The position numbers and the translations under genes were made by a program. Below, piece by piece: positions 33,595-61,725 of a DNA stretch of 64,000 bases (position 1 is the stretch's first letter; the number at the start of each line of letters is the position of its first letter). The notes below the pieces were generated by a model. The model searched no databases, was not told where the DNA came from, and saw nothing but the letters and a program-made list of their open reading frames with translations. This DNA is from Candidatus Hadarchaeales archaeon (lineage in GTDB: Archaea > Hadarchaeota > Hadarchaeia > Hadarchaeales > WYZ-LMO6): positions 124,001 through 188,000 of the forward strand of contig JAVYML010000002.1 of the NCBI GenBank assembly GCA_038736355.1, given 5' to 3'.

Positions 33595-33783
33595 TGGGAT
33601 ACCCCACCCCAGCCGAACCATATTTTTGGGGACCTAGATCTTCGTCTGGAATCCTTGGAAGCCCTATGCACCGTCGAATCCGCGTATGCCCCAAGACAAC
33701 GTTTTATTTTGTCTTCAGCCAAAAACCGAATTAGAGCCAGATTAGACTAGGATTTGGAGAAGGTACAGTTTCGGTGAAAGGCG

Positions 33784-33890
33784 AAAGGTTGTGAACTTCT
33801 TTATAAATCCCCCCCGCAGAAACCGAAGTTCACAAACCGAGACCCAAAACCTTTAAGGATGGGCGAGAAAAATTCGAGAGAAAGAGGGGG
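33784..33890 (+). promoter_or_regulatory. Leader and promoter of CRISPR array 1
   Basis: This segment abuts the first repeat and recurs before array 2 and at the third locus. A perfect 9-base inverted repeat (GTGAACTTC at 33791-33799, GAAGTTCAC at 33825-33833) encloses a TATA box CTTTATAAAT (33799-33808), so transcription would start near the right arm. A second conserved block, AACCTTTAAGGATGGGCGAG, lies closer to the repeat. Upstream, 33595-33783 holds no gene I can recognise. Confidence 0.85.
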
Positions 33891-42063: not shown

Positions 42064-42134
42064 TCTCTCACCCCCTTAGTTGTTTTCTTCTTGCCAAGAA
42101 ATAAGAATAAATCCGTATCCCTCAGGAGTTCGTT

Positions 42135-42212
42135 GGGGTCGTGGGGTAGCCTGGTCTATCCTCCTGGCTTTGGGAGCCAGGGACCTGGGTTCAAATCCCG
42201 GCGACCCCACCA
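42135..42212 (+). tRNA. tRNA-Pro (anticodon TGG)
   Basis: Complete cloverleaf with acceptor GGGGTCG/CGACCCC, anticodon stem CTGGC/GCCAG around TTTGGGA (anticodon TGG), T-arm CTGGG-TTCAAAT-CCCGG, discriminator A and encoded CCA (42210-42212). It stands directly before the cas6/array 2 block, a typical insertion-side position. Confidence 0.95.
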
Positions 42213-42279
42213 AGGCCCTTTGGGAAATGGTTTTTCAACAAAGTTTATTTGTACTCTGACAACACTTAAAAAGGCCGAT

Positions 42280-43206: not shown

Positions 43207-43208
43207 GT

Positions 43209-43307
43209 TGTGAACTTCTTTATAAATCCCTCCTGCAGAAACCGAAGTTCACAAACCGGGGCCCGAAACCTTTAAAGATGGGGGGCGAGAAACAAAAGAA
43301 AGGGGGG
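43209..43307 (+). promoter_or_regulatory. Leader and promoter of CRISPR array 2
   Basis: Near-identical to the array 1 leader: GTGAACTTC (43210-43218) and GAAGTTCAC (43244-43252) flank the TATA box CTTTATAAAT (43218-43227), and the conserved AACCTTTAAAGATGGGGGGC block precedes the first repeat. It begins two bases after the cas6 stop, so homology to the other leaders starts where coding ends. Confidence 0.85.
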
Positions 43308-44946
43308 GTTTCAGTAGGATGCCCCTGAAAATGGGGATTGAAAGACTGGTTGGCGGTCTTGGTGGATGGGGATGTATGGTGTTTCAGTAGGATGCCCCTG
43401 AAAATGGGGATTGAAAGTCAGCCAGTGGAAGGGAAGGCCTTACGTGCGCACGTACGTTTCAGTAGGATGCCCCTGAAAATGGGGATTGAAAGGTGAATTT
43501 TTTGTTTACTACGTCATAAATTCCTGCCGTTTCAGTAGGATGCCCCTGAAAATGGGGATTGAAAGAAAACGGGCAACTATATGCCGCCAGTTTTGTAGGT
43601 GTTTCAGTAGGATGCCCCTGAAAATGGGGATTGAAAGAGCTGGAAAAGAACGGTAAAGTGGTAAGAAGTCAAGTTTCAGTAGGATGCCCCTGAAAATGGG
43701 GATTGAAAGCGCTGTTCTTCGTCGGGGAATGGGCCCCGCGCTTCGGTTTCAGTAGGATGCCCCTGAAAATGGGGATTGAAAGCTAGCTTTATTTTCTGCT
43801 CCGGCCGTATGAACACACCGTTTCAGTAGGATGCCCCTGAAAATGGGGATTGAAAGTCATTACCGGATCCGGCTCCAGATCCCTCATTTCGTTTCAGTAG
43901 GATGCCCCTGAAAATGGGGATTGAAAGTCTGACTCCTTATCACCAATTTTTTCGCTTGTTATGTTTCAGTAGGATGCCCCTGAAAATGGGGATTGAAAGG
44001 GACAATAGGGCTAGACAACATTCTGGCAACGGCAAGTTTCAGTAGGATGCCCCTGAAAATGGGGATTGAAAGAGGAGTGGTACCAGTACTCATATGATTT
44101 CTCATACCGGTTTCAGTAGGATGCCCCTGAAAATGGGGATTGAAAGTTCACTCTATCGATTGTCCATTCTTTTTCCCTGGCTGTTTCAGTAGGATGCCCC
44201 TGAAAATGGGGATTGAAAGCACGCATAACCTTCCCCCAAACCACCCGGGGGCCGTGTTTCAGTAGGATGCCCCTGAAAATGGGGATTGAAAGATACGCCC
44301 AATAACGCAGTTCAGCGCAACGTATCCGTTTCAGTAGGATGCCCCTGAAAATGGGGATTGAAAGGTTTTCTCCTTCCCGGGGGGAGATTTCCGGGTCTTG
44401 TTTCAGTAGGATGCCCCTGAAAATGGGGATTGAAAGTGCACACCGTTCCCTTGGGGTCGTAGGGCACGGAGGGTTTCAGTAGGATGCCCCTGAAAATGGG
44501 GATTGAAAGCCGCCGGCGGGGGCGATAAAAGCCCACGGTTTATGCGTTTCAGTAGGATGCCCCTGAAAATGGGGATTGAAAGTCAGCTCCGAATCGATGT
44601 CCAAGTTCGTGTATCAAGGTTTCAGTAGGATGCCCCTGAAAATGGGGATTGAAAGAACCTGGAAGCCTCGATACTATTGTCCCAATTGTCGGTGTTTCAG
44701 TAGGATGCCCCTGAAAATGGGGATTGAAAGTTCTTTCCGAAAATCGCTTCACCTTCACTCCCAACGTTTCAGTAGGATGCCCCTGAAAATGGGGATTGAA
44801 AGTCATTTCGTGATTTAAGAAGCTTTTCAAATATTTCGTTTCAGTAGGATGCCCCTGAAAATGGGGATTGAAAGACTTCCACCAGCTTTCTTGTTCCATA
44901 ACGGGTTTCGTTTCAGTAGGATGCCCCTGAAAATGGGGATTGAAAA
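43308..44946 (+). CRISPR. CRISPR array 2: 23 repeats, 22 spacers
   Basis: Same 37-nt repeat and orientation as array 1, with repeat starts 71-75 bases apart. The distal repeat at 44910 ends in A instead of G and is followed by a run of A. I saw no spacer shared with array 1. Both arrays are probably served by one set of acquisition proteins and Cas6 enzymes. Confidence 0.98.
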
Positions 44947-45255
44947 AAAAGAGGATCACTGGCTCGGAAGTGAAAGCAAGAGTTTCAGCCTCTCCCAAAG
45001 TTATATAAATACCTCTTCACGACCCTGCGTACCTCAACACTCACCGTTGCTCCCAATCCTATCCCTCGCTTTCTGAGCCCTAGGTTTCCTCTTTGTGAGC
45101 TCCTTTGATGTGATATACTCAGATGCCTTTTAGCTCCTCCGAGGCAGCCTTCAGAAAATGTGAAGATATGTGAATGGAACAATGAGAATACCGGACTTTC
45201 AAGCCCACACGGGTGAAAGACCCTACACTTGAATTTCCGCTTAAATTCCCGAAAA
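44947..45255. other. Gene-free gap after array 2
   Basis: No convincing gene on either strand. A TATATAAAT element (about 45002-45010) is the only promoter-like feature, and nothing plausible follows it. The minus-strand effector operon ends at the right border. Confidence 0.4.
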
Positions 45256-46137
45256 TCACGTGCCAGGATTCAGCCAATTTATAAAATTGTCTAAGTCCAG
45301 CTTCTCTCCAGTGAAAGGATCGGCCAGCTTTGCCCCGTCATCTCCCCGCAAGTCGGCAATCCAAAATTCACCACTCCTCAGCTCCAACTCACCCATCCCC
45401 ACGCTTTTCCTCGCCCCAAGTGAAAGCCCCACCGACTTAATTAAACTAAGCGTTTCCGCGAGAAGTTTCGCCTCCAAACTACCGGGCTCAAGATTGTCTA
45501 CTATGAACCATAGTCCCAGCTTGGAAGGCTTGACTGATTCCAAAAAGTATAAGTGGTGCTCGCTCGCCCTCCCACTCTTTCTGTCAATCCCGACTCCCGG
45601 TTTGTCCTGGATGCTCGCCTCCAAAGGAATATCCAGAAATCTGAGCTTCGAGGCAATCTTCTGCCCTCCCATCAGCCTGTACAGGGGGTGCCTTACCGTC
45701 GCGTACTCCACCGCAATTTTCTTTAATGTTTCCCTGTTTTCCGGTAGCAGCTCTAGCTTTGCCCAGTCCTCCTCACTCTTCACCCCCAGCCGCTCCAACT
45801 CGTCCTCCAAGCCAAGCGAGCGAAGCAGGGGGAGGATTCCCCTTTGTTGCAGCACCCACTGGACTGCCTGATCAACCTGCTCCTTCAGGCATTCGAGCTT
45901 CCCCTCCCCTATTTCGAACGCGTCCGGAAGACCCGGAACGCTCACGGTCCTCGCAACCTGCTCCACAAGCTTTCGAATGGCACCCTTGACGGAAGATGCT
46001 GGAATCAGAACCTTCTCCCCGATTTTAAGGATCTCCCTCCTGACCTCCTCCCCCCCGGCCCCAATGTGCAAAAGCGACCTACCTTCGAATTCTAGCCTTC
46101 CAATCACCCTATTCTTCAACGGCAGGAGATGGCTCAT
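45256..46137 (-). CDS. Type III RAMP protein (Cas7/Csm5-like), last gene of the effector operon
   Basis: 293 residues from ATG 46137, overlapping the previous gene by four bases; the longer open frame is a shadow. LLHIGAGGEEVRREILKIGEKVLIPASSVKGAIRKLVEQVA is the RAMP pattern (variant IPASSVKG loop), and the C-terminal SVGLSLGARKSVGMGELELRSG supplies the glycine-rich loop. The middle is helical and longer than in plain Cas7. It is probably a backbone or capping subunit of the interference complex. Confidence 0.75.
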   Translation of the reverse strand: MSHLLPLKNRVIGRLEFEGRSLLHIGAGGEEVRREILKIGEKVLIPASSVKGAIRKLVEQVARTVSVPGLPDAFEIGEGKLECLKEQVDQAVQWVLQQRGILPLLRSLGLEDELERLGVKSEEDWAKLELLPENRETLKKIAVEYATVRHPLYRLMGGQKIASKLRFLDIPLEASIQDKPGVGIDRKSGRASEHHLYFLESVKPSKLGLWFIVDNLEPGSLEAKLLAETLSLIKSVGLSLGARKSVGMGELELRSGEFWIADLRGDDGAKLADPFTGEKLDLDNFINWLNPGT

Positions 46138-47207
46138 GTTCCCTCCACCGGATGCCCAGCCAGCGGGAGGAGCTGGTTCACGCAGCACAATGTCTCGCCT
46201 CCCCATTTCTCCACGGTCCCCAGGATTCCCAGGGAGGCAATGGCCTCCCAACTCACATTCCCAACCACTCTTGCCCTCAAGATACTCCCTTGATAACATA
46301 CACTGTAAAAGGTCGGCCTGCTCCTCCCCCTGAGCATGTCCCATCCCGCCTCATATGGCCCAGCCCTTCCATAAACTTTTTCTATCACAAGGGAGCCCTC
46401 AGCAGGTCTACCGATTCTATTCCCTATCGGTTCCAGCTCAATCATGGTCGGGAAGGGAGTAACCCTCTGGCCGCCTCCCAGAAGGGGGGAGAGAGCGTAC
46501 AACACAAGAATCCCATCGATGGAAGCCTTTCTGCAGTATTCTTCGAGCTTTTTCACGTCCAGCTCCCGCAGACTCAGCCTGGCTTCCCCGAATCCTCTAG
46601 TCACCCCTCTTCCGATCCAGATTTCCAGCGGATTAGGAATTTCGTACGGAGTGGCAAGATAGGCCCAGAACATTTGCCCACTTTCAAGCGCGTCGTACTC
46701 GTAGAGCATGCCTCCCTCAACCGAGGCCCTGTCCTTGTTTACACCAGCACATACGGAGGAGGTGAAACTGACCTTCACTCTCTCACCGTTTGGAAGAGCT
46801 GGTCCCGGATGCAGGCTTTCGAGGCTCACATGACCATACCTGCAGCTTGTCGGAATGGTTGGTTCTTTCCCTTTCTCGATCTCCATGCGAGCCTCCCTTC
46901 CCCGATTCTCGCAAGGATTCTTCTCCGGTTTGCATAGTTTACACTTGAAGAAGAAGGGATGAGCAGGCCAGCTCCGCTGCCCGTCGACGAGTGGATAGGC
47001 AGGCGTGCAGATGAGGGAGGGATCATCCGCCTCCTTTTCGAGCTCGCTCCGCGAGATTTTGTCATGATAGTAGAGGGAGGATAGAATTGCCCCCCTCAAG
47101 GTTGTTCCGGGTATAAACTCGAGAGCTGCCTTGAATCCGCGCTCGGTTCTGCGGGAAGTTATAAGTGCCGGAGATCTCAGTTCAATCCGGACCTCGTAAA
47201 ACTTCAT
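46134..47207 (-). CDS. csx10: Csx10-like (Cas5-group) RAMP protein of type III-D
   Basis: 357 residues from ATG 47207, four-base overlap with the previous cas7. The opening FYEVRIELRSPALITSRRTERGFKAALEFIPGTTLRGAILSSLYY, two cysteine pairs (CKLC about residue 92-95, plus CENRG), RYGHVS, and the terminal-half IGRGVTRGFGEARLSLREL fit Csx10, which replaces Cas5 in type III-D. It would cap the crRNA 5' handle next to Cas10. Subtype assignment rests largely on this protein. Confidence 0.7.
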   Translation of the reverse strand: MKFYEVRIELRSPALITSRRTERGFKAALEFIPGTTLRGAILSSLYYHDKISRSELEKEADDPSLICTPAYPLVDGQRSWPAHPFFFKCKLCKPEKNPCENRGREARMEIEKGKEPTIPTSCRYGHVSLESLHPGPALPNGERVKVSFTSSVCAGVNKDRASVEGGMLYEYDALESGQMFWAYLATPYEIPNPLEIWIGRGVTRGFGEARLSLRELDVKKLEEYCRKASIDGILVLYALSPLLGGGQRVTPFPTMIELEPIGNRIGRPAEGSLVIEKVYGRAGPYEAGWDMLRGRSRPTFYSVCYQGSILRARVVGNVSWEAIASLGILGTVEKWGGETLCCVNQLLPLAGHPVEGT

Positions 47208-47818
47208 ATTTTCCCCTCCCACAAAAATTTCTCGAGTTCTTCCACGAGTTTAAGCCACCTTCCCTCCACTCTTCCCCGAAGCCCAGCCGTCCCGCCTATC
47301 TTCAGGTCGAGGAGGGATTTTCTCCCGGCCCTTCCCGTTCTGAGTTCCGCAAGCGCGAGGAGCAGAAGCCCGAGAAGCCCAGCCCCATCCTCCATGACCC
47401 TTATCGTCCCCCTGAAGCTTCCACCATATGAGTGCTCCTGGGTAAAAAGGCCTCCCTCTTCGGCCTTATTGCTTTTGTCGTCAATCCTGACCCTCGTGAA
47501 CCAGAGGAGTTCATGTTTTCCGACAGCCTCCAGGTTCCCTACGATGAGTTTTCCCTGCGATCTCACGGATCCGAAAAGTTTACAGACGTCACAGGAGCCA
47601 CAGAGTTCTTCGGGCCTTATCTTGCTGCAAGAGGAAAACCCATACGTTTCAGCTACTCTCGATGCAGCCGACCTCAGAAGGCCCTTGAAGGTCGAACCCG
47701 GAATGAAAATCTTTCCCCTCTCCTTTATGAAGGGAACGTCTGGCCCAAAAACCTCGACCGTCCCCCCACCAACCGTGAAGAGCCCGACGGGTCTGGCCTC
47801 GACCTCGAATTCTATCAT
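47204..47818 (-). CDS. Cas7-type (Csm3-like) RAMP protein
   Basis: 204 residues. GKIFIPGSTFKGLLRSAASR is the RAMP nucleic-acid-binding loop, CGSCDVCKLFGSVRSQGKL the CxxCxxFG zinc-like motif found in other RAMPs here, and RVRIDDKSNKAEEGGLFTQEH the Csm3/Cmr4-like segment containing acidic residues. Probably a backbone Cas7 subunit that binds crRNA and may cut target RNA. It has four-base overlaps with cas10 and csx10. Confidence 0.8.
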   Translation of the reverse strand: MIEFEVEARPVGLFTVGGGTVEVFGPDVPFIKERGKIFIPGSTFKGLLRSAASRVAETYGFSSCSKIRPEELCGSCDVCKLFGSVRSQGKLIVGNLEAVGKHELLWFTRVRIDDKSNKAEEGGLFTQEHSYGGSFRGTIRVMEDGAGLLGLLLLALAELRTGRAGRKSLLDLKIGGTAGLRGRVEGRWLKLVEELEKFLWEGKI

Positions 47819-50427
47819 GCAATTCCCCCCAGTGCAAATTTTATCAGCAGTTCAACGTCACCGAACGCCGCCTTTCCCCACCCCTCCGCGCACGCGTCCA
47901 CGGCCATCCTCCATTCTTCCCTATTTTTCAACCTAATCTGCTGCCTCCTCATGTAGAGTTTTGAGACCTCGTTTAGCAGCTCCTCGTCCGCCCCCCCACC
48001 CAGAATTCTCTTCGCAGCCTCGACAGCCTCCTTGATGCAACGCCTAACCCTCTTCGCAAGCTTCTTAACCTTATTATCTTCCCTATCTTCCCTCGAGGTA
48101 TCCAGCGCCCACCTATACCAGTCCCCGTGCGAGCCCCCACCGGAAAGCTTTTGAAGGATCTCGCCCAGCCTTCCCCCATTTTCAACCACGAAAGGCTGAA
48201 GAGTCATCTTCTTCCCTTCCAGCTCTTTTCTCCGGTAACGAACGGCGGTAGAGGAGAGAGGAACCTCGCAAACATCGTAGCAAATGGCCCCCCGACTCAC
48301 CTTTTCCCTCGTCCTGCTCTTCGCTTCCCTTTCCAGCTCATCCGCAGCATCTATCAGGGACCAAACCGGCGCCTTCGCACCCCCTGCTGCCAACCCAGCC
48401 GAAAGTCCCCTCACCTCCCCCATGTAGGTCCTGAACCTGGAGACGAGCGAGTGGGTGAAGATGGGTGCATACCAGGAGCTCATGAGCGCGAGGGAGTCGT
48501 CCCCTCCCATATACAGCAGTCCGAGCTCGAGTCTCGCGATGGCCTTTCTCGCCTCCTGCCCATCCTTCCCGCTCAAGGCGGTGTAAAGTTCGCGGGCCGA
48601 ATCCTCGAAGGCCCTCTTGAGAGAAATATCTATCCTCGCACTCCTTTCACAGGCATCCGTTATGGAGATGGCGGAGGCCATGAAAGCCCCCATGCAGACC
48701 CCATCCACCTTCAGAACAGCGTAATTCCTCTGCTCGACACCCCTTCGAATTTCCTCCAGATCGTGACCGGCGATGATTTCCATCAGTTTGACCGAGGCAT
48801 CCTTCCACTCACTTTTAAAGATCTCCTTGGGCGAACCTAACCCCTCTCCTGGGAGGAAGATCTTCGTTTCCCATCTCTCCTTGAAATGGAATTCGTCCCC
48901 GAGTTTTATCAAATCGTTACAAACCTTACAGTAGTCCTCCACCTCCGCAATCCTTGTGAAGCAGCACTTGCACTTTTTCGCATCGCCCCTCTCCACCCGC
49001 GCCTCTTCACGCGAGGAGATCTTCTGGAGGCCCATCTCCCTCGCCATACTTTCGAGCAGGTCTGGGAAGAAGGCTAAGAACTGGGCGGTTACCATCCTGA
49101 GCTCAAGGGGGATTTTTTCCCTCGCAAGAACGCCGGTATACTTCTTAACTGCCCCCTCGATCTCCCCCTTCAGTACCTCCGGGAAGACGAAGTACAGGTT
49201 GCCCCCGCCGGAATAAAGGAACGCCTCCATCGGGAACCAGGCCCTCCGCTGAAGCTCCTGCTGGATGAAGGCCGGAACGTGAACCAGGACCGCCGTCTCG
49301 ATCACATAGCTGGCGGCCGCGACCGCCTTCAGCTCGGTTGGAGTTCGGATGAATCTCTGGATCCCTCCGAGGTCGACACATCCAAACCAAATCCCCTCCA
49401 CCGGGGCGTAATAGTAACCGGGCGGGAGCGGGAGGGTTCTGACGAAAAGATTGCCCCCCTCCCCCGTATCCCTCCGAACCTTCTCGACGAATTCCTCGCT
49501 AAGCGACCTTATGGAGCCGGGAGAACTTCTTTCTAGCTCCACCCAGAAGTCCCAACCCTCAAGCTCCTGAACCTCCGGTTTTCTCCCGAGCCTTCCCGAG
49601 ACGATTTCCTGAAGATATCCGCTTATCCGGTCGGTCGCCGAGGACAATCTGTCCGCCTCCCTGATTATCCTTCCCCCCTCCTTCTCGCCCCTGTGGTGAT
49701 CCCTCACCAACCTCACAATTTCCTCCCTCTCCTCCGGGTCCAGGAAGTCGGTGAACCACTCCGCGATTTCGGCCGAACGCGCGACATGCTCCTTCGGGGC
49801 GAAGGGCTTGCCGACATCGTGGAGGAGAGCCGAAAGCCTTACCAGCGCCGCCTCCCTCCTCCCCAAACCCCGCTGGACGGCTAGGGCCCAGGAGAGCGCG
49901 GAGGTCGTGAGCAGGTGTGGAATGAGGCCCGCGCAGTTTGCCACGGGGCGGGTGTCCGCAGGCAAGTGGAACCAGCATCTCTCAACCCTTTCCCTTGCCC
50001 CCTCGACGATCTTCAGCAATTCCTCAAGCTGCGGCCTGAACTCCCTGTAAATCATGTACAGGTGGCTGGCAAATTCAATGGGGTTGTCTCTGAACTCCTT
50101 GAGTCTTGTTTCTGACACGAGCCTCCAAGCGAGGTAGGCTTTAAGCGGGCTCGGCAGGAGCGAGATCGGCTCGCGGAGAAGGGGAACTTTAAGGAAAAGA
50201 ACCAGCAAATCCGCAACGAGTTCGAGCCTCGCTTCTCCCCTTACCTCCAGCGCGTTGACCGCCCGCGTGATGAAGTCCTTCGCAAGCTTTAGGGTCTTCC
50301 CCCATTCCTCGACATCTTTTTCGCTCAATTCCCTGACCGACAGAGTGCCATTTTCCCAGTAGGGGACGATGAAGGACTTGTAAACCGGATACGGCCACTC
50401 GGCTTTCCGAAAAACGTTCGCGGTCAT
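47815..50427 (-). CDS. cas10: Cas10, large subunit with intact HD and GGDD motifs
   Basis: 870 residues. The HD domain carries LLHDVGKP (H203-D204) and a following VRDHHRGEKEGGRIIREADRLS. The first palm has YSGGGNLYFVFPE (about 405-416), inactive in its acidic pair; a zinc knuckle with CKCC and CKVC lies at 486-503; and the second palm has LLYMGGDDSLAL (GGDD 641-644), the cyclase site for cyclic oligoadenylates. Both nuclease and signalling functions therefore look intact. The start is coupled to the upstream RAMP gene (ATGA), and three CARF-type genes nearby fit the signalling role. Confidence 0.93.
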   Translation of the reverse strand: MTANVFRKAEWPYPVYKSFIVPYWENGTLSVRELSEKDVEEWGKTLKLAKDFITRAVNALEVRGEARLELVADLLVLFLKVPLLREPISLLPSPLKAYLAWRLVSETRLKEFRDNPIEFASHLYMIYREFRPQLEELLKIVEGARERVERCWFHLPADTRPVANCAGLIPHLLTTSALSWALAVQRGLGRREAALVRLSALLHDVGKPFAPKEHVARSAEIAEWFTDFLDPEEREEIVRLVRDHHRGEKEGGRIIREADRLSSATDRISGYLQEIVSGRLGRKPEVQELEGWDFWVELERSSPGSIRSLSEEFVEKVRRDTGEGGNLFVRTLPLPPGYYYAPVEGIWFGCVDLGGIQRFIRTPTELKAVAAASYVIETAVLVHVPAFIQQELQRRAWFPMEAFLYSGGGNLYFVFPEVLKGEIEGAVKKYTGVLAREKIPLELRMVTAQFLAFFPDLLESMAREMGLQKISSREEARVERGDAKKCKCCFTRIAEVEDYCKVCNDLIKLGDEFHFKERWETKIFLPGEGLGSPKEIFKSEWKDASVKLMEIIAGHDLEEIRRGVEQRNYAVLKVDGVCMGAFMASAISITDACERSARIDISLKRAFEDSARELYTALSGKDGQEARKAIARLELGLLYMGGDDSLALMSSWYAPIFTHSLVSRFRTYMGEVRGLSAGLAAGGAKAPVWSLIDAADELEREAKSRTREKVSRGAICYDVCEVPLSSTAVRYRRKELEGKKMTLQPFVVENGGRLGEILQKLSGGGSHGDWYRWALDTSREDREDNKVKKLAKRVRRCIKEAVEAAKRILGGGADEELLNEVSKLYMRRQQIRLKNREEWRMAVDACAEGWGKAAFGDVELLIKFALGGIA

Positions 50428-51386
50428 CTTTTTGGACTCACCTCCTCTATATCCTTAAGCTCTCCCTCATATGCGCGCCTCGCCAACTCCACGAGCTCCT
50501 TCACGAGCCGGTCGTCGGCCTGCACCTCGTCGCCTGCTTTGATCTCAGTCGAATCCAACTTCAGTTGCTCCGAGAACTGGGATAATTTAAGTGCGTCAAG
50601 TCTGTATCTTATTTTTCCAATCGGCCCCACATACTTCAGCCTTCCCATGAGGACCTCCCTCCCGATTCTCCCATCCCTGAGACCCATTCCCCACAGAACC
50701 AGTCCCAATTCTTCCGGCTTCAGGTTCATGAACCGCACCTTCCCAGTAAAAACGGAACCGACCTTCGCAATCAACAATTTCAACCCGTACTGAAATTGCT
50801 GTGGGGAGAGCCTGCCCTCACTAAGGGTAAAGTCGCTGAACTCGAGCAGACCGATCAGACCGGTCGTCCCAAAGAGATCGCAGAGAAGGCATACCTTCTC
50901 CTGCTCCCCCCTCACGAAATCGCACTGCGACCCTTTTCCTTTCCTAGGAACGATTCTATTCTGTTTCACCGAGGACTCCCATATCTTGAAATGCCTCCAG
51001 GACCCGTCCTTCGAGGGGCCTTTCTGAAACCTTCCCGTCTCCGTGAAACAAGATCTGAACCGGCCATCCTTTTCCTTAAAGGAAAGCTCCAGCCTTGCCC
51101 TAACGTTCCCCTTTACGCTTGAGCCCGGTATGACAGCCCTTCCCTCGATCGAGGGGAAGGGCCAGTAGTCAAGTTCTATGGTCTGGGCTAGCTCCCTTGC
51201 CGCCGCTAGAAAGTCCGCCTTCTTCGGCAGCTCCTGCAGTTCCTCCTCATCTGCTTTTATTGGAAGTTGACCCGAGCCCACATGAAGACCGCTCACAACT
51301 TCGATGGAAACGCGTAGCTCCCCGCAAAGTCCTATAAACCTTCCCCTCGTCCTAGGCTCTTCTTGGATTACGTTGAACTCCCTCAT
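50424..51386 (-). CDS. Type III RAMP protein (Cas7 superfamily)
   Basis: 320 residues from ATG 51386; an earlier start at 51497 would read a tryptophan-rich shadow of the upstream gene. LRVSIEVVSGLHVGSGQ, GRAVIPGSSVKGNVRARLEL and VCLLCDLFGTTGLIGLLEFSDF (CxxCxxFG) show the RAMP fold with a large insertion between residues 105 and 160. The C-terminal 40 residues are acidic and helical. It is translationally coupled to cas10. Confidence 0.75.
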   Translation of the reverse strand: MREFNVIQEEPRTRGRFIGLCGELRVSIEVVSGLHVGSGQLPIKADEEELQELPKKADFLAAARELAQTIELDYWPFPSIEGRAVIPGSSVKGNVRARLELSFKEKDGRFRSCFTETGRFQKGPSKDGSWRHFKIWESSVKQNRIVPRKGKGSQCDFVRGEQEKVCLLCDLFGTTGLIGLLEFSDFTLSEGRLSPQQFQYGLKLLIAKVGSVFTGKVRFMNLKPEELGLVLWGMGLRDGRIGREVLMGRLKYVGPIGKIRYRLDALKLSQFSEQLKLDSTEIKAGDEVQADDRLVKELVELARRAYEGELKDIEEVSPKR

Positions 51387-52206
51387 ATAGTTTAACCACC
51401 TCCCATAATTGAGCCAGCTTCCGTAGGACCCTCCAAGCTGCGTCTCCTCTCGCCACCAACCAATCGTTCTCCACCTCCATTTCCTCGACCTCCACATCTC
51501 TATCCAGCGGATCGAGAGCAGTCATTTTCTTCCCGGTTCCCCTAACATCTCGATTTCTGATCTCGATCTCCTCCAACCTCACTTCTCCAAAGCCCCTCGT
51601 CTTGAACCCTCCAATCTTCACCTCTCCCTCGTGCAGGCAAAGAAGGACTCTCGAGAGCAAACCGAGCGCGAAGTTAGGTAGGTTGAGGCAACGAATGCTC
51701 GACTTAAACTTTGCCCTCGGCTCAACATATTCTATATCGAAAAGGTTCTCCGCTTTCCCGGATTTCCTGCCGATTCGAATTCCCCTCCTAACACCCAGCC
51801 TGAATGGATAAAGCTGCTGACCGTCCCAGGGGAAAGCATCCAAAAAACTCACAAGTCCCTTGTACCCCTGTGTTCCAAAAATTTTGCACAAAAGACAAGC
51901 CTGCTTCGCAAACTTTTCGATATCTTTCTCCCGCCCAACCTCGCATCTATTTCCGGACAGCTCGCAGACTCTCAGCCCCTTCCACGCAAGGAGTTTTGCG
52001 CAAAAACTTCTGAAGACTCCCTTCAGGCTGGATCCCGGAATATATGGCACTTCCCCGAACTCGGAAGGAATTCTAAGAACAGCGAGATCGGATAGTGCTT
52101 CGAGTGGAGGTTCTCCGCCGCATCCGATTCTTAAAGGAGCTTCGTTTGTCAGAATAAAGTTGAAGGAAGTTTCCCTAAGAATGTTGGCATGTGAAATCCA
52201 TTGCAT
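51352..52206 (-). CDS. Csx7-like RAMP protein (Cas7 superfamily), copy 2
   Basis: 284 residues. APLRIGCGGEPPLEALSDLAVLRI, EVPYIPGSSLKGVFRSFCAKLL, ACLLCKIFGTQGYKGLVSFLDAFP, and GGFKTRGFGEVRLEEIEIRN follow the Csx7/SSO1426-type RAMP layout, similar to the neighbouring 226-residue protein. The C-terminal 70 residues are an extra charged helical extension. It starts one base after the stop of that neighbour. Confidence 0.75.
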   Translation of the reverse strand: MQWISHANILRETSFNFILTNEAPLRIGCGGEPPLEALSDLAVLRIPSEFGEVPYIPGSSLKGVFRSFCAKLLAWKGLRVCELSGNRCEVGREKDIEKFAKQACLLCKIFGTQGYKGLVSFLDAFPWDGQQLYPFRLGVRRGIRIGRKSGKAENLFDIEYVEPRAKFKSSIRCLNLPNFALGLLSRVLLCLHEGEVKIGGFKTRGFGEVRLEEIEIRNRDVRGTGKKMTALDPLDRDVEVEEMEVENDWLVARGDAAWRVLRKLAQLWEVVKLYEGVQRNPRRA

Positions 52207-52207
52207 G

Positions 52208-52888
52208 TTATTGTACTCTACCCTCTTTTTTCAAAACGAACCCTTTTTCGGTCAAGGTATACGTGGCGTAATTCAAGTCCTCCAAAACTGTTAGGCCGGA
52301 CCCTACTGTGCTCCTCGCCCCGACATGCAGTCCCGTAGTTCTGAACATACGGAAGAGTGTCTCCAAGATTTTTCCTCTCTTGTCCGTATTCTCCTCGAAA
52401 ACCGGGATGTTTATGATATCGACCCGAAAATCCCACCTGCAACCCGGGACCACCAACTCCTCGAAGAAAGGCCCGTGTGCTACGCTTCCGAAGTTTCTAT
52501 CAATCGCGACTCCAGGCTTGACGAAGATTGGTGCTTCACCCTGAGGATATGCGTCATAGACCTTTATATGGCTCATTAACTCCTGATTCCCAAAAATCCC
52601 GCAAATCTCGCAAAAGTCACCCTCCTTCTCAGCTTTCGGAAGATCCCAGGGAGGATGGGGGGTAATTCCGAAGGAGGGTGCGAGGATTTCCGCCGTGGCT
52701 CGTAAAACCCCTTTCAGGCTTGATCCCGGTATACAGGCTACTTCCCCCACTCTGAAAACGGCTATGTCAACCGCTGCCTCGAGAGACGCCTCCCTTCCCG
52801 TCCCCACGCGGAGCGGAGTATGGTTTATAAGGATCCCCCTGATTTTGGTAAGACTCTTAAGTTTGTCGAAGTCTCTATAATCTGGCAT
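52208..52888 (-). CDS. Csx7-like RAMP protein (Cas7 superfamily), copy 1
   Basis: 226 residues, the most compact RAMP of the operon. TPLRVGTGREASLEAAVDIAVFRV, EVACIPGSSLKGVLRATAEIL, FCEICGIFGNQELMSHIKVYDAYP, AIDRNFGSVAHGPFFEE and LHVGARSTVGSGL match the Csx7 (SSO1426) family. It likely forms part of the crRNA-binding backbone. It overlaps the Cas11-like gene by 14 bases. Confidence 0.8.
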   Translation of the reverse strand: MPDYRDFDKLKSLTKIRGILINHTPLRVGTGREASLEAAVDIAVFRVGEVACIPGSSLKGVLRATAEILAPSFGITPHPPWDLPKAEKEGDFCEICGIFGNQELMSHIKVYDAYPQGEAPIFVKPGVAIDRNFGSVAHGPFFEELVVPGCRWDFRVDIINIPVFEENTDKRGKILETLFRMFRTTGLHVGARSTVGSGLTVLEDLNYATYTLTEKGFVLKKEGRVQ

Positions 52889-53279
52889 CTACATCCCTAA
52901 AGACAGAGCTGGCGAATTCTTTAAGAGTTGATCTGATCTGCTCCTCTGTCTGCTCCTCTGTAGAAGCCTCCAGAATCCACTTTGCAAACACAAGCATTTT
53001 GCGGGCTTCTGTTCTGCTTCCGTTGGCTTTGTAAATTTGGTGAAGAATAGATGCCACCCGCTTCGCGAATTCCTCCGTGAGAAGAGCCTTCCCTCGCTCC
53101 TTTCGGTGGGACTGCCTTAAAGCAAACACAGCTGTTACATACAGAGCGAGACGAGGATCCCCTACGCTTTCAAGTGAAGCAATCAGCCTTTCGAGCTGGT
53201 TCTTTTCTATCTTCTCAGAGAGAGCTAAAGTTCCTATTTCGGTACCCCAGTTTATCAAATCCTCCTCTGTGGGAGGCAT
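52875..53279 (-). CDS. Small helical effector subunit, Cas11-like
   Basis: 134 residues, predicted all-helical and charged, first gene of the effector operon. No sequence motif defines it; the call rests on size, helicity and position directly before the RAMP genes, where type III systems encode Csm2/Cmr5-like Cas11 subunits that line the target strand. An ATTTTTTAAAGG promoter-like element lies about 30 bases upstream of the ATG. Confidence 0.6.
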   Translation of the reverse strand: MPPTEEDLINWGTEIGTLALSEKIEKNQLERLIASLESVGDPRLALYVTAVFALRQSHRKERGKALLTEEFAKRVASILHQIYKANGSRTEARKMLVFAKWILEASTEEQTEEQIRSTLKEFASSVFRDVDARL

Positions 53280-53542
53280 CGTTTATATTTGGTACTGCCT
53301 TTAAAAAATCTTACGTTTTAAGTTTCAAATTTTCTCAAAGCTCTGAAACCCAATCCTGATGGTGATTTTTTACTTTCAGGGTCTTTACTAATAACGCTTG
53401 GTGAACAGGACGAAGTTATAATCTCGCTTCATCATCGACTCTGCTGATAACCCTCCCTCCTAACTCTTTCGAGACTTAAAAGGTTAGAAACGACTCCCTC
53501 CAGAGATGACTACTGTGAGGTCAGAAAGTAGTGTTTGTGATA
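53280..53542. promoter_or_regulatory. Gap with the effector operon promoter
   Basis: 263 bases, AT-rich, without a credible gene. On the minus strand ATTTTTTAAAGG and CCAAATATAAACG lie within 40 bases of the Cas11-like ATG and are candidate promoter elements for the whole type III operon. The cas6 copy 2 gene ends at the right border. Confidence 0.4.
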
Positions 53543-54430
53543 TTACTTGATTTGGCTAAGTTCAAAAAAACCCATTCCAAAAGAGAACTTAGACCCGGCC
53601 CCCAGAACCCTTCCAACCGAAAGCAACCAGCGCCCGACCTCATCGATTTTCTCGAAGTGATATTCTGCGGTTCCCATCCACCCCTGCAATTCCCTCTTTC
53701 CCGATCTCATCGACCTGCCAGGAAGCCTCACGAGTTTGCTCTCAACAATCCTCCCGCTTCCCTCGCAAGAAAAATCCGGGACCTTCCTTCCATCCCCGTA
53801 CTCGTTCACGAGAAGGATTAGCCGATGCCTAATCAGCTCCAAGAAATCGAAGGGTGAGGAGGGAAGCCCCTTTGGGAGCTCGATAGGAACCTTAAACTCA
53901 ACCCTCACCCCATTCCCCTTAAAGGGCTCAAGCTCCCGAACCTCCACAGACTTAAGGTTCTTCACGTATATTATCCCATCCCCGAAAACCTTTTGCCCGC
54001 TGAACCAGCATCTTCCCTCCGTTATCCTGAAGCGGTTGAAGCCAAGCCTTCTGAGGTTCCCGAGCCCGTCTACCCCCAGCCACTGGAGGGTGAGAATCAG
54101 GTGGGGAAAAAATCTTATGTAATCTCCAAGCAGAACAAGATCGACCTCCATTTTTATCCTCCCTTTCATGGGTCTGCCAAAGGGTGGGATCACGGCAATG
54201 GGCCGGGGGGGAGGGGTCCTTCCCCTTTTAGCAAAGGGACGCATGAAAGCAATGTAGAACGGGCATTCGTCCGAAAGGTTGCATTTTTCGCATTCTTTGC
54301 TGGGACAATAGCAGACGAGGGGGCGGAGGTGCTGTCCTAGTCCTCCCCTGAAGGTTGACCCAAGCCAACCGGGAAGCCTGACAGGGGAAGAGAAAAGGAG
54401 GCTGAGTCTGGCCCTTGCTACATTCAGCAT
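53543..54430 (-). CDS. cas6: CRISPR repeat endoribonuclease Cas6 (copy 2)
   Basis: 295 residues from ATG 54430, chosen by alignment to the N-terminus of copy 1; a TTG at 54448 would add six residues. RLPGWLGSTFRGGLGQHLRPLVCYCPSKECEKCNLSDEC, LLGDYIRFFPHLILTLQ, LIRHRLILLVNEYGDGRKVP and the terminal GRVLGAGSKFSFGMGF parallel copy 1 throughout. It differs in a run of basic residues (LVRLPGRSMRSGKRE). It lies upstream of the effector operon on the same strand. Confidence 0.9.
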   Translation of the reverse strand: MLNVARARLSLLFSSPVRLPGWLGSTFRGGLGQHLRPLVCYCPSKECEKCNLSDECPFYIAFMRPFAKRGRTPPPRPIAVIPPFGRPMKGRIKMEVDLVLLGDYIRFFPHLILTLQWLGVDGLGNLRRLGFNRFRITEGRCWFSGQKVFGDGIIYVKNLKSVEVRELEPFKGNGVRVEFKVPIELPKGLPSSPFDFLELIRHRLILLVNEYGDGRKVPDFSCEGSGRIVESKLVRLPGRSMRSGKRELQGWMGTAEYHFEKIDEVGRWLLSVGRVLGAGSKFSFGMGFFELSQIK

Positions 54431-54448
54431 CATATATATTGGTAACAA

Positions 54449-57342: not shown

Positions 57343-58317
57343 TTAGAGCCCAAGCGAGCGAGGAGATACTTTGATCAACTTTCCATCTTTCATTTCCCAC
57401 AGGATATTCAACTCAGTTGCCCACCTTTTCCATTTAGAAAAATTCTTAACTTCTTTATGGATTTTGTTCCCCAAATTCGCTATGCTTTCTAAAAAGGGTC
57501 CGCGTGAAACCCTGTCCCCTTCTATGGTTATAAGCCTCCCGCGAAGTTTAGCGATGAACTGCTTGGGAAGATCCAATCTCTCGAGCATTTGCTCTAACTC
57601 ACCCATACCCATATCGCCTTTGGCGAGCCTGCTGTTCAACTCGTTTATAAGCTCTCCAATGGCCAGCTGAAAAAGGGGAAATTCCCGCCACTTTCTCATA
57701 GCATTTTCGACATATTCCCTAGGGTCTCGCATGTTGGGCCTCTCAGTTTCCGGATGTAGAAGTAATACATCGTTCTGAAAAATGTAGTAGTACCGTGCGG
57801 ATATGGCGTGGAAAGTCCCTCCCAGTAGCAAGGCCATATTTATTGGATTAGTTCCTCCAATCATGTTAATCCAAACTTCTTTCTCGCGAAGCGCGTAGAG
57901 AGTTGTACCTATTTTTTCAAAACAATCCTCAAAATCTTCGTGATTAACTTCTACGAAGTAGATGTCTTTAATCCATTCGCCGTCGTAAAAAGGACGAAAC
58001 TTTTCATCCTCAAGTTCTTTCCATAGATTTCGGAGATATTTCCACATAGATTGCGGGAACACTCTTCCGCTTCCAAACCACTTATCTTCGATTTCTATTT
58101 TTGCGGTCCCCGTAATAACGGATCGTGAAGTGAATATGATGATACACTCAGGGGCTCCTCTGCTCCCTTGTTTAAGCTCTCCCGAGGTTTCAAAAAACCT
58201 TTTGGCATTTTCGTTTCCAAGAACCGCCGATTTCAAAAAGAGGTAGATGTAAGTAAGAGGAACAGTCACAACTCCAGGACGCAACCCCATTCCGCTAAGA
58301 TGGTAGACTCCCATCAA
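57343..58317 (-). CDS. CARF-like CRISPR accessory protein with unknown output domain
   Basis: 324 residues. VWINMIGGTNPINMALLLGG (about 148-167) resembles the conserved ligand loop of CARF proteins, preceded by alternating strands and helices (ECIIIFTSRSVITG, KDIYFVEVNHEDF). The C-terminal 120 residues are helical and charged; I see neither a HEPN RxxxxH pair nor a PD-(D/E)xK or HTH pattern I can trust. A TTTTATATC TATA box about 25 bases before the ATG suggests a leaderless mRNA. It could be a new CARF effector. Confidence 0.6.
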   Translation of the reverse strand: MMGVYHLSGMGLRPGVVTVPLTYIYLFLKSAVLGNENAKRFFETSGELKQGSRGAPECIIIFTSRSVITGTAKIEIEDKWFGSGRVFPQSMWKYLRNLWKELEDEKFRPFYDGEWIKDIYFVEVNHEDFEDCFEKIGTTLYALREKEVWINMIGGTNPINMALLLGGTFHAISARYYYIFQNDVLLLHPETERPNMRDPREYVENAMRKWREFPLFQLAIGELINELNSRLAKGDMGMGELEQMLERLDLPKQFIAKLRGRLITIEGDRVSRGPFLESIANLGNKIHKEVKNFSKWKRWATELNILWEMKDGKLIKVSPRSLGL

Positions 58318-58489
58318 AGGGGTTTAAGTTTTCGATATAAAATCCCTCTCTGAGTTAGCCTGAAGAGCACCTCAAGAGGAAAGGTTAGTTAGAGGCGCGA
58401 ATAGAGTTTGAAAGAATGCTCAAACTCGTAAGCCTTTTCCGCTGGTCTCAAATATTCCCTTACTCGATTGAAGTTTGGATCAACTAGAA

Positions 58490-58526
58490 CTTTCAATCCC
58501 CATTTTCAGGGGCATCCTACTGAAAC
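58490..58526 (-). CRISPR. Solitary CRISPR repeat behind a full leader (spacerless locus)
   Basis: One exact copy of the 37-nt repeat on the minus strand, directly after the third leader copy. No second repeat follows within the expected 73 bases, where sequence reads TTCTAGTTGATCC and onward. An inverted repeat GAGTTTGA/TCAAACTC lies further on (about 58405-58430). The locus looks like an empty or freshly reset array that could still acquire spacers. Confidence 0.9.
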
Positions 58527-58644
58527 CCCTTTCTTTTGTTTTTCGTCCCCCCATCTTTAAAGGTTTCGGGCCCCGGTTTGTGAACTTCGGTTCCTGCGGG
58601 GGGGATTTATAAAGAAGTTCACAACCTTTCGCCTTTTACCGAAA
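58527..58644 (-). promoter_or_regulatory. Third CRISPR leader copy
   Basis: Minus-strand copy of the array leaders: the inverted repeat arms lie at 58614-58622 and 58580-58588 around the TATA box (about 58605-58614), and the CCTTTAAAGATGGGGGG block at 58547-58563. Homology to the array 1 leader extends upstream through GTTTCGGTAAAAGGCGAAAGG to the cas4 stop codon. Confidence 0.85.
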
Positions 58645-59244
58645 CTATACCCTCTTGCAAAACTTCGCCACCTCACAGTACCCGCAATACTCTGGACTGG
58701 CAGCCCTGGGAACCTGATCGGAAGCTATCATCTCTCGTATCTTCTCCAAATCCCTCTTCAAAGCCTCCTTCTCCTCGGGTAGAATGTTCAACCAAAAGGT
58801 CCGGTGGGAGGGCAGGAGGTAAATGAGGCCCCTCCTGATTCTCACCCCCAGCGACCTTTCAAGCAGCACGGCATAAGCCAGCATCTGCTTCCTCCACGCC
58901 CTCGAAACGTAGGGCAAATCCGAATACTTCACATCGACCGGCACCATCTCCCCGCTCTTTAGTCTCACCACCGTGTCCGCCTTCCCGAAAAGCCCCATCT
59001 CCCGATCCTCCAGGGGGAGGTCGTGCAGGATCCGATCCACCTCTTCTGGGGAAAACCCGTAGATCCTCTTCCTGCGTCCGGTCCTCCCCGGCTCCCTACC
59101 GTGCTGCTCACCCCCAAGCTCCACCTTCTTCCTCTCCGGTGGATACAACCCCAGCTTCCTGATGAAGTAGAGCTTCCTCGGGCAGTAAAAGTACTGGTAT
59201 ACTTCCCAGGCACTTATCTCACCAGCGCTGCCAAAACCCTTCAT
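58645..59244 (-). CDS. cas4: CRISPR-associated exonuclease Cas4
   Basis: 199 residues from ATG 59244 (GGAGAGGT just upstream; GTG 59259 would add five residues). EISAWEVYQYFYCPRKLYF gives the first Fe-S cysteine, GLFGKADTVVRL and VPVDVKYSDLP the RecB-like nuclease core with Asp and Lys, and CGYCEVAKFC the remaining cysteines. Cas4 trims prespacers and checks the PAM together with Cas1-Cas2. It overlaps cas1. Confidence 0.93.
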   Translation of the reverse strand: MKGFGSAGEISAWEVYQYFYCPRKLYFIRKLGLYPPERKKVELGGEQHGREPGRTGRRKRIYGFSPEEVDRILHDLPLEDREMGLFGKADTVVRLKSGEMVPVDVKYSDLPYVSRAWRKQMLAYAVLLERSLGVRIRRGLIYLLPSHRTFWLNILPEEKEALKRDLEKIREMIASDQVPRAASPEYCGYCEVAKFCKRV

Positions 59245-60238
59245 ACCTCTCCAGCTCACCCCTCAGGAACCTCGCCAGCTTCCTGGCCTGGTGGAGGAAG
59301 AGCCCACCCCAAGTGAGCCTAAGGTCCTCGAACCTCACCTCTTCTTCCAGCCTCCTGAGAAGCTCCTGAAGGTAGAACCTCCTGACCTCCTCCCCCATCT
59401 GGCACACCCCATCCACCACCTCAAAACCCTCCTTGGAGACCATCCTCTTGCTCACCATTCCCACCACCATCCTGTCCACCACATGGGGCCTGAACTCCTC
59501 CATCAAATCCAAAACCAAGCTCGGCCTGCCCGGTCTATCGGCGTGCAGGAAACCCCCGTAGGGATCCAGCCCTGCGTAATGCACCGCCCTCCATACCTCC
59601 CCCAGCAAAATCCCGTAGCCGTAGTTCAGCATGGCGTTCACGGGATCTGTGGCGTATCTCCCGCTCCTCCCTCCAAAGCCCCACCCCTCGAAGATTCCCG
59701 CCAAGGCTTCCCAGTAGAGCTGGGCCCCCCTCCCCTCCAGGTTCATTATTCTCTCCCTCACTTCATCCACCTTCTTCCCCTCCACCTCCTCCAGCTCAGG
59801 CAGGAGCTTCACCATCTCCTCCGCCGCGGTTCGCAACCTCTCCGCCAGGGAAGGAACCGTTTCCACCCTCTTCTTGGCCAGTGTCTGGAGGACGGCGACC
59901 TGGTTCTTCAGCTTCGCCCTTATCACGGCCTTGGCCACCCCCACCCCCCTCTCATCCCCGTAGGCCAGATACTGTTCCCTCCTCGTGCTCACCGTCCTCA
60001 TCTCGGGGGAGGAGAGCCTGGCCTTAACCTCACCCCGAAAGTCCACGATGAGCACGTCCACCCCGTGTTCCGCTAGCAGCCTCAGGGCGTCCGTGCTCAC
60101 CACTCCCTTTCCCGAGATGATCACCTGCTCCAGCTCCTGGGGCTGGAGGCGCGCCACGGTCTTCCCGCCCTCCCTCACCACTATGGTCTCCCCCTTCCTT
60201 CCCACGAACTTCCCGAAGCCGTCCACCACCAGCCTCAC
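59219..60238 (-). CDS. cas1: CRISPR integrase Cas1
   Basis: 339 residues from GTG 60238, which overlaps the csa1 stop (GTGA) and gives the typical start RLVVDGFGKFVGRKGETIVV. Catalytic blocks are MNLEGRGAQLYWEAL (Glu), DPVNAMLNYGYGILLGEV, LHADRPGRPSLVLDLMEEFRP (His and acidic residues). Complete and presumably active in integrating spacers at the shared leader-repeat junctions. Confidence 0.95.
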   Translation of the reverse strand: MRLVVDGFGKFVGRKGETIVVREGGKTVARLQPQELEQVIISGKGVVSTDALRLLAEHGVDVLIVDFRGEVKARLSSPEMRTVSTRREQYLAYGDERGVGVAKAVIRAKLKNQVAVLQTLAKKRVETVPSLAERLRTAAEEMVKLLPELEEVEGKKVDEVRERIMNLEGRGAQLYWEALAGIFEGWGFGGRSGRYATDPVNAMLNYGYGILLGEVWRAVHYAGLDPYGGFLHADRPGRPSLVLDLMEEFRPHVVDRMVVGMVSKRMVSKEGFEVVDGVCQMGEEVRRFYLQELLRRLEEEVRFEDLRLTWGGLFLHQARKLARFLRGELERYEGFWQRW

Positions 60239-61119
60239 GCGCACACCTCCGAGAAGGGGCATGCCTGCCTGCACTCCGCCGGCCTGCCCGGATCCTTCTT
60301 CTGGGCCACCAGCTCCAGCTTCCTGTCCCTCTCCTCCAACCACCAGTTCCTCAGGTCATCGTTGATGAAGAAGAGGTCCCGATTCACCACCACCCTGCCG
60401 TTCCTGAAGCCCACGTGGACGGAGCACCCCACGTCCACGGGCACCTCGTAAAGGCTCTCGAAGACCAGGGCATAACCCGTTGGGTAGAGGCGGTAGAAAT
60501 CCCTGGGGGATCCTCCCACCTTCACGTCGAAGATGAGGTGCCTTAGGTAGTCGTAGCAGTCCACGCTGAGCGTACCGCTCAGGCCCAGCAGCCTCCCGTC
60601 CAGCTTGTGCTCCACCAGGAAGGGGAGGGCCACCGCCAGCACGTGGGGCTCGTCCGCGTACGGGTGGGCGGCCCTCGTTTCCAGGTAGGCGGCCCTGGCT
60701 TGGCTCAGCACCAGCTCCCAGAGGGGCTCCAGGCAGGAGCGGAGGGCCCTGGCGTTCTCCACCTCTCCCCTCCTCCCCAGCTCCCCCTCCCACCACTCCT
60801 CGAAGCTCAGGTCGAACCTCCCCTGCCTGCAGGACCCGAAGAGGTGCTCCAGCAGGTTGTGGGCCATGGCCCCAAGCAGGATCTCCTGCGTGGGCTTCCC
60901 CTGCTTTTTCTCCACGTACATCAGGTAGACGTCCCTGCCCGTGGGGCAGAACTTCCCGCAGACGGAGAACATGGAAATGCGCTCCGGGTAGTATGGCTTC
61001 AGCGGTTCCCTCCACCAGTTCCATCCCCTCAGCTCGGGGGTCACCCCCACCTCCCTCGCCAGGGGGAGAACGCGGTTGAGGAGGAACTTGTGCTCCTGGG
61101 CGGAGAGGAAGAACACCAC
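60235..61119 (-). CDS. csa1: Cas4-family protein Csa1
   Basis: 294 residues. The Csa1 pattern is seen: CGKFCPTGRDVYLMYVEKKQGKPTQEILLGAMAHNLLEHLFG near residues 54-95, GLSGTLSVDCYD and LIFDVKVGGSPRDFYRLYPTGYALVFE (nuclease core), and terminal cysteines in CRQACPFSEVC. Csa1 is the second Cas4-like nuclease of archaeal type I-A adaptation modules, here linked to a type III effector instead. Confidence 0.85.
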   Translation of the reverse strand: MVFFLSAQEHKFLLNRVLPLAREVGVTPELRGWNWWREPLKPYYPERISMFSVCGKFCPTGRDVYLMYVEKKQGKPTQEILLGAMAHNLLEHLFGSCRQGRFDLSFEEWWEGELGRRGEVENARALRSCLEPLWELVLSQARAAYLETRAAHPYADEPHVLAVALPFLVEHKLDGRLLGLSGTLSVDCYDYLRHLIFDVKVGGSPRDFYRLYPTGYALVFESLYEVPVDVGCSVHVGFRNGRVVVNRDLFFINDDLRNWWLEERDRKLELVAQKKDPGRPAECRQACPFSEVCA

Positions 61120-61163: not shown

Positions 61164-61451
61164 TCACACGAGCTTTACCCTGTCCTCCTCCACCAAGGAG
61201 GGGACTGGCCTTTCGGAGACTATCCTGCACAGCCTGGCACAGCGCTCGCACAGGGGTATGACGTAGATCGAGTCCCTCTCCCCTCCTATGAACTTCGGAA
61301 GCTCCTTCACCAGGACTTCCCTGTCGTGGGCATTCAGCTCCCCCTTGAAGGCGCTGTACTGGATCCTCTGCAGGCCGTAGTCGAAGAGACGGTCGGCCAG
61401 CTTGGTGCGGATGTCGTCAGAGCTTATGTCGTAGATGACAAGGGTCAGCAT
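61164..61451 (-). CDS. cas2: CRISPR-associated Cas2
   Basis: 95 residues from ATG 61451 (a TTG at 61454 adds one residue). LTLVIYDISSDDIRTKLADRLFDYGLQRIQYSAFKGEL is the ferredoxin-like Cas2 start with the conserved Asp, and SIYVIPLCERC the fourth strand. It forms the integration complex with Cas1. Its ATG overlaps the stop of the ATPase relic upstream. Confidence 0.95.
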   Translation of the reverse strand: MLTLVIYDISSDDIRTKLADRLFDYGLQRIQYSAFKGELNAHDREVLVKELPKFIGGERDSIYVIPLCERCARLCRIVSERPVPSLVEEDRVKLV

Positions 61452-61725
61452 CAATGCATCCTCACCAGCCCGACTTGAAATACCCTCCGTATGATCGGGT
61501 CTACGATGGAGTAGACCTCCCCTTTTTTCTCAAGGAAACCGCCTTTACGAGTTCCTGAAGTTCGAGAGGATGTTGTCGGCCACTTTTTCCCTCCTCCATT
61601 TCCAAGCTTCTCTTGAGGTTTACCCAGGAAGCCTCCTCCATCCAGGCAGCGGCCCGCATGATCGCGAAGTACCTCCTGCTCCCACGCCTCCTTACCCTGA
61701 GGAAGTTGGAGAACTCTAGCCCCAA
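61451..61725 (-). pseudogene. Frameshifted C-terminal relic of an archaeal AAA ATPase
   Basis: The first part reads RRRGSRRYFAIMRAAA, then ASWVNLKRSLEMEEGKSG and LQELVKAVSL; after a one-base shift at an A6G4 run (near 61526-61535) it continues GEVYSIVDPIIRRVFQVGL to a TGA at 61451-61453. The combined sequence resembles the winged-helix end of archaeal ATPases (PF01637 type). The N-terminal ATPase domain is missing. Confidence 0.5.

What the first reader, a model, noticed from the sequence alone, without database searches (positions are those of the whole stretch)
58490..58644. A third CRISPR leader with one repeat and no spacer, next to cas4
The leader of arrays 1 and 2 occurs a third time, inverted, followed by one perfect repeat and then unique sequence. 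A conserved promoter, the TATA-enclosing inverted repeat and the leader-repeat junction are all kept. This is either an acquisition-ready empty array or a single repeat RNA with another role, such as an anchor for Cas6 or a tracr-like regulator. Homology with leader 1 extends to the cas4 stop codon, suggesting the locus came from a duplication.
Basis: seen in the sequence. Interest (0 to 1): 0.78.

Follow-up and report, generated by a model that had tools for sequence, protein, structure and literature searches.

The report
Emptied CRISPR array beside cas4
A heat-loving archaeon (Hadarchaeota) keeps, right behind its CRISPR adaptation genes, an intact CRISPR start site (leader plus one repeat) with no stored virus memory, at a spot where relatives carry normal memory arrays; it is most simply an array that was emptied and could be refilled.

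Summary
On the minus strand cas4 stops at 58645-58647. A full leader (58527-58644) and one perfect 37-nt repeat (58490-58526) follow, then unique sequence. The genome has only three such leaders.

Relatives explain it. In Hadarchaeota genome G005, DNA homology (75.5%, 2,972 nt) runs without a break from cas2 through csa1, cas1, cas4 and the leader to the last base of the first repeat, where G005 has an array of at least 11 spacers. Genomes G010 and G027 also have cas4, leader, array. The solo is therefore the old adaptation-operon array site, now without spacers, in a type III-D locus.

Its 9+25+9-nt TATA-enclosing dyad is perfect, as in working arrays. It is decayed in two control relics: a leader with one repeat in G001, which has no detected cas1 or cas4, and a repeatless leader fossil in G005.

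Array 1 carries a decayed 17-nt copy of the cas4 3' end, so copying went from the cas4 site to array 1.

Tracr-like, creR-like and decoy-RNA roles lack support. Array collapse and refilling are already described in Legionella, so this is a new archaeal example of a known kind. Raw reads could still show an assembly or strain artefact.

The parts
58490..58526 (-). single perfect 37-nt CRISPR repeat GTTTCAGTAGGATGCCCCTGAAAATGGGGATTGAAAG
58527..58644 (-). CRISPR leader between the cas4 stop codon and the repeat
58614..58622 (-). first arm of the leader dyad, GTGAACTTC
58606..58613 (-). TATA box TTTATAAA enclosed by the dyad (predicted leader promoter)
   Evidence: promoter role inferred
58580..58588 (-). 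second arm of the leader dyad, GAAGTTCAC, 25 nt from the first arm
58625..58643 (-). upstream leader element TTCGGTAAAAGGCGAAAGG, shared with array 1 and all G005 leaders
58318..58489 (-). unique sequence after the repeat: no second repeat, no genomic homolog, no trailer homology
57343..58317 (-). CARF3/Csx1-like CARF protein gene downstream of the solo repeat (own TATA-like element just upstream)
58645..59259 (-). cas4
59219..60343 (-). cas1
60235..61119 (-). csa1 (Cas4a-type)
61164..61454 (-). cas2
33762..36379 (+). array 1: leader (with decayed cas4-end copy at its left edge), 34 repeats, then a degenerate truncated repeat at about 36366
43207..44988 (+). array 2: leader, 23 repeats (last with one mismatch), then a degenerate repeat start at 44982
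45256..54448 (-). type III-D effector operon (Csm3-like RAMPs, Csx10/Cas5, Cas10, Csm2-like) and Cas6

Best explanation
This is the adaptation-operon CRISPR array of a Hadarchaeota type III-D locus, reduced to its leader and one repeat. Shown: it lies at the site where relatives keep a multi-spacer array directly behind cas4, its leader elements and repeat are intact, and array 1 derives from this site. Inferred: an older array collapsed by recombination between repeats (or by replacement with a leader-repeat unit). The Cas1-Cas2-Cas4-Csa1 set encoded next to it can still insert a new spacer at the leader-repeat junction, duplicate the single repeat and refill the array. Its leader promoter should meanwhile make a short transcript with one Cas6 site and no functional guide.
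For: Continuous 75.5% DNA homology over 2,972 nt from cas2 to the last base of the first repeat in G005, where at least 11 spacers follow. The same cas4-leader-array order in G010 and, with a diverged leader, G027. III-D operon colinear in G005 at 77-93% protein identity. The dyad arms, 25-nt spacing and repeat are perfect, as in live-array leaders, while two relics decayed: the G001 leader plus one repeat with no detected cas1/cas4 (3 arm mismatches, spacing 23, altered repeat), and the G005 repeatless fossil. Array 1 carries a decayed cas4 3' end (1 of 2000 null). Literature: leader plus one repeat can acquire spacers and collapsed arrays can refill (PMC8047081 section 7; PMC7056967; PMC9602844); repeat-repeat deletion in Sulfolobus (PMC3025118).
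Against: No scar proves a past array here: no terminal-repeat remnant (p=0.10) and no trailer homology. A never-filled or re-seeded leader-repeat is equally compatible with the sequence. The leader just before the repeat differs from arrays 1 and 2, so acquisition competence is inferred. Neither raw reads nor sister strains could be inspected. Perfect leader retention could simply mean recent collapse rather than selection.
Confidence: 0.72

Rival explanations
1. Assembly or strain-variant artefact: the real array beside cas4 was skipped by the assembler, or only a minority of cells has lost it.
For: Relatives all have arrays here. The genome is a 4-contig draft, and G005 itself breaks inside this array.
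Against: Two longer arrays with identical repeats were assembled in full in the same contig, and the site lies mid-contig (440 kb) with clean unique flanks.
Confidence: 0.13
2. Founder or re-seeded unit: leader plus repeat was placed or converted here without spacers and has not yet acquired any, rather than having collapsed.
For: Leader-repeat units group by genome, not by site (post-dyad leader 69-80% within G000, 96-98% within G005, 46-51% between), so units are copied between loci. The solo has no terminal-repeat relic.
Against: The upstream side is positionally orthologous to filled arrays, and array 1 carries the cas4 tail, so copying went outward from this site.
Confidence: 0.2
3. creR/CreA-like regulatory RNA: the repeat plus the following sequence forms a crRNA-like RNA that steers Cas proteins to a cas or CARF3 promoter.
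For: Intact promoter-like leader, a single repeat and an adjacent CARF gene; creR RNAs are known for types I and V-A (PMC12737573).
Against: The first 8 nt after the repeat match nowhere else in the window. No type I Cas7 family match and no Cas3 over cut-off in the genome. The post-repeat sequence is not conserved in relatives.
Confidence: 0.04
4. Promoter capture: the leader promoter reads through the single repeat into the CARF3 gene, putting a Cas6-cleavable repeat in its 5' UTR.
For: CARF3 lies 172 nt downstream on the same strand with no T-run longer than 4 between.
Against: CARF3 has its own TATA-like element just upstream (sequence). The pairing of leader and CARF3 is not seen in G010, and G005's contig ends inside the array.
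Confidence: 0.1
5. Dead relic leader that Cas1-Cas2 no longer uses.
For: It holds no spacers, while arrays 1 and 2 hold 33 and 22.
Against: Dyad, TATA and repeat are all intact, unlike the two relics.
Confidence: 0.15

Closest known systems
Collapsed (depleted) CRISPR array of Legionella pneumophila type I-F and its refilling (PMC7056967; reviewed in PMC8047081)
   Same: Leader plus a single repeat beside cas genes, with other arrays of the same repeat in the cell.
   Different: Here archaeal type III-D; the remaining repeat is the consensus, without a terminal-repeat scar; found in a genome, not made in the lab; refilling not observed.
Engineered leader plus single repeat acquisition sites (aCRISPR in Acinetobacter type I-F, PMC9602844)
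   Same: Same minimal anatomy, shown there to acquire spacers.
   Different: Natural, archaeal, with a different leader architecture and no test of activity.
Solitary repeat units / Racr anti-CRISPR RNAs of viruses (PMC10651486)
   Same: One repeat downstream of a promoter.
   Different: Those lie in viral genomes away from cas genes; this has a full leader and abuts cas4.
creR / CreA crRNA-like regulators (PMC12737573)
   Same: Repeat-containing RNA near cas genes.
   Different: No guide match in the window and no type I effector found here; type V-A was not searched.

Membership tests
CRISPR array site of this system (leader plus repeat) | leader homologous to the leaders of bona fide arrays in the same genome | tested here: met
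CRISPR array site of this system (leader plus repeat) | consensus repeat at the leader-repeat junction | tested here: met
   37/37
CRISPR array site of this system (leader plus repeat) | at least two repeats flanking a spacer | tested here: not met
   no second repeat
Collapsed array | positional ortholog of a multi-spacer array | tested here: met
   G005 continuous homology; G010 and G027 gene order
Collapsed array | scar: remaining repeat is a terminal-repeat variant, or trailer sequence retained | tested here: inconclusive
   repeat is consensus; trailer of the G005 ortholog lies beyond its contig end
Collapsed array | same-species strains with spacers at the site | not testable with these tools
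   no second genome of the species with this locus held
Acquisition-competent leader | conserved leader elements intact | tested here: met
   dyad, spacing and TATA
Acquisition-competent leader | spacer integration observed | not testable with these tools
   needs reads or an assay
creR/CreA-like RNA | guide-like sequence matching a cas or toxin promoter | tested here: not met
   no 8-nt seed match in the window
creR/CreA-like RNA | type I or V-A effector in the genome | tested here: inconclusive
   type I not found: PF01905 absent, no Cas3 over cut-off; type V-A not searched
Racr / viral solitary repeat unit | lies in a virus or provirus, away from cas genes | tested here: not met
   abuts cas4 in the adaptation operon
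tracrRNA | anti-repeat complementary to the array repeat, with a type II/V effector | tested here: not met
   the copy is in repeat, not anti-repeat, orientation to its leader; the linked effector is III-D

The most novel reading that the evidence does not exclude
The cas4-side leader-repeat is a master unit, normally kept spacerless in this lineage, from which the genome's other arrays were seeded and with which they are homogenised; array 1 still carries the tail of cas4 as a mark of its origin. Leader-repeat units would then be copied between loci as modules, giving the concerted evolution seen within each genome.
Probability: 0.1. Interest if true: 0.6.

Novelty: new member of a known kind. 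Interest (0 to 1): 0.36.

Why it matters
Total loss of a CRISPR memory bank followed by refilling has mostly been shown with engineered bacteria. A natural, intact leader plus one repeat at a site where relatives hold arrays offers an archaeal case in which collapse and refilling can be tracked in environmental reads. The copied cas4 tail in array 1 gives a rare direction arrow for how new arrays arise. For annotators it is a reminder that array finders needing two repeats miss such sites.

Tried and rejected
Degenerate second repeat after the solo repeat: not supported (p=0.10). Trailer of arrays 1 and 2, or of relatives, downstream of the solo: none. Special RNA fold of repeat plus downstream: ordinary (z=-0.55). 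The sequence after the repeat as a spacer: no match to phage records, and its central 20 nt not found in viral contigs. creR-like targeting: no seed, no type I effector. Exact repeat in other genomes or viral contigs: none. Same-genus genomes G001 and G002 as sister loci: cas4 absent; G001 has a non-syntenic decayed leader plus repeat. CARF3 homolog in G037: no direct repeats in its 4-kb locus.

Full report
WHAT IS THERE. On the minus strand the order is cas2 (61164-61454), csa1 (60235-61119), cas1 (59219-60343), cas4 (58645-59259), then the leader (58527-58644) and one perfect 37-nt repeat (58490-58526). After 172 nt of unique sequence comes a CARF3/Csx1-like gene (57343-58317). Beyond lie a ring nuclease, Csx1, Cas6 and a type III-D effector operon, with array 2 converging on it. 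The genome (G000, 1.27 Mb, 4 contigs) belongs to an order whose member G010 is a Hadesarchaea MAG. The leader occurs only three times in it: array 1, array 2 and this site.

WHAT IT IS. The decisive evidence comes from a relative in another family of the same order, G005. DNA homology (75.5% over 2,972 nt) runs without a break from cas2 through csa1, cas1, cas4 and the leader to the last base of the first repeat (window 61450-58490 against L035 12872-15834). In G005 that repeat is followed by at least 11 spacers up to the contig end. The G005 III-D operon is colinear, with proteins about 77-93% identical. The trailer of array 2 is 82% and 93% identical in two stretches to the trailer of G005's array behind tRNA-Phe. 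G010 has cas4 overlapping the leader and then a long array. G027 has cas4, a diverged leader and at least three repeats. So the cas4-side array is an old feature of this adaptation operon, and the window's copy is the exception in having no spacer.

IS IT ALIVE OR DEAD. All seven array leaders compared (window arrays 1 and 2, three in G005, one each in G010 and G018) keep a dyad GTGAACTTC-25 nt-GAAGTTCAC enclosing a TATA box, with at most one arm mismatch and exact spacing. The solo has it perfectly. Two other relics serve as decay controls. G001 (same genus, no cas1 or cas4 detected) has a leader with a single repeat in which both arms, the spacing and the repeat have changed. G005 has a repeatless leader top after tRNA-Glu that has lost the dyad. 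The window's solo resembles live leaders. This fits either present use or recent emptying; the two cannot be told apart here.

WHERE COPIES COME FROM. It in fact reaches about 17 nt into cas4: array 1's upstream edge TTTGGAGAAGGTACAG matches cas4's end TTTGCAAGAGGGTATAG (anchored extension reached by 1 of 2000 random places). Since that stretch is coding in cas4 and meaningless beside array 1, copying went from the cas4 site to array 1. More generally, leader-repeat units group by genome and not by site. Between the dyad and the repeat, identity is 69-80% within G000, 96-98% within G005 and 46-51% between them, although the cas4 site is the same in both. Units are therefore copied or converted between loci within a genome.

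HOW IT MOST LIKELY WORKS. Shown: orthologous site, intact leader and repeat, no second repeat. Inferred: recombination between repeats removed the spacers (such deletions are known in Sulfolobus, PMC3025118, and whole-array collapse in Legionella, PMC7056967), and Cas1-Cas2 with Cas4 and Csa1 can start a new array by copying the one repeat (single-repeat acquisition, PMC8047081 section 7; PMC9602844). The remaining repeat is the consensus rather than a degenerate terminal form. The crossover must then have used an intact last repeat, as G010's array ends with, or the unit was re-seeded.

ALTERNATIVES. An assembly or strain artefact cannot be excluded without reads, though two longer arrays in the same contig assembled fully. 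A regulatory crRNA-like role is unlikely: the first 8 nt after the repeat match nowhere else in the window, the genome has no DevR/Cas7 match and no Cas3 over cut-off, and the fold is ordinary. Read-through of the leader promoter into CARF3 is possible, as there is no T-run longer than 4 in between, and it is testable by RNA 5' ends. The decoy-RNA reading (Racr, PMC10651486) does not fit a leader-bearing repeat abutting cas4. The confidences given to the rivals are not exclusive: the founder, promoter-capture and relic readings overlap with the main one.

VERDICT. A correct and nicely seen feature with a mostly ordinary explanation: a spacerless but intact array site. It is a new archaeal example of array collapse or re-seeding, with the extra value that one of the genome's other arrays appears to have come from it.

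Noticed in passing
G001 C7:8261-8382 (L061 1501-1622): Second leader plus single repeat in the phylum, decayed, in a same-genus genome with no cas1 or cas4 hit but with an array at C36.
   Followed up: partly
G018 C44:29858-29895 (L081); G003 C10:12464 (L091 7464-7500); G013 C94 (L064); G004 C2 (L066): Solitary leaderless repeats: perfect in G018, one mismatch to G010's repeat in G003 and lying beside broken cas6 pieces, degenerate in G013 and G004.
   Followed up: partly
G005 C4:13413-13571, 73984-74140 and 71535-71566: Two arrays start within a few bases of the 3' ends of tRNA-Phe and tRNA-Leu, and a repeatless leader fossil lies behind tRNA-Glu, as if leader-repeat units landed behind tRNA genes.
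   Followed up: partly
L034 about 10345-10318 (-), G005 tRNA-Phe array: The degenerate terminal repeat GTTTAGTAGGATGCCCCTGAAGGAGAC keeps the window-type repeat rather than G005's own, suggesting the window's repeat is the older version.
   Followed up: no
window 36366 and 44982: Arrays 1 and 2 each end in a truncated degenerate repeat after a last spacer; array 1's keeps GTTTCAGTAG and array 2's GTTTCAG.
   Followed up: yes
window 41959-43206 (+): A second, Cas6-like gene immediately upstream of array 2's leader, distinct from Cas6 at 53543-54448; G005 has its relative at the start of contig C4.
   Followed up: partly
L034 9739-10236 (+), G005: Broken CARF3 relative lying antisense at the trailer of the tRNA-Phe array.
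   Followed up: partly
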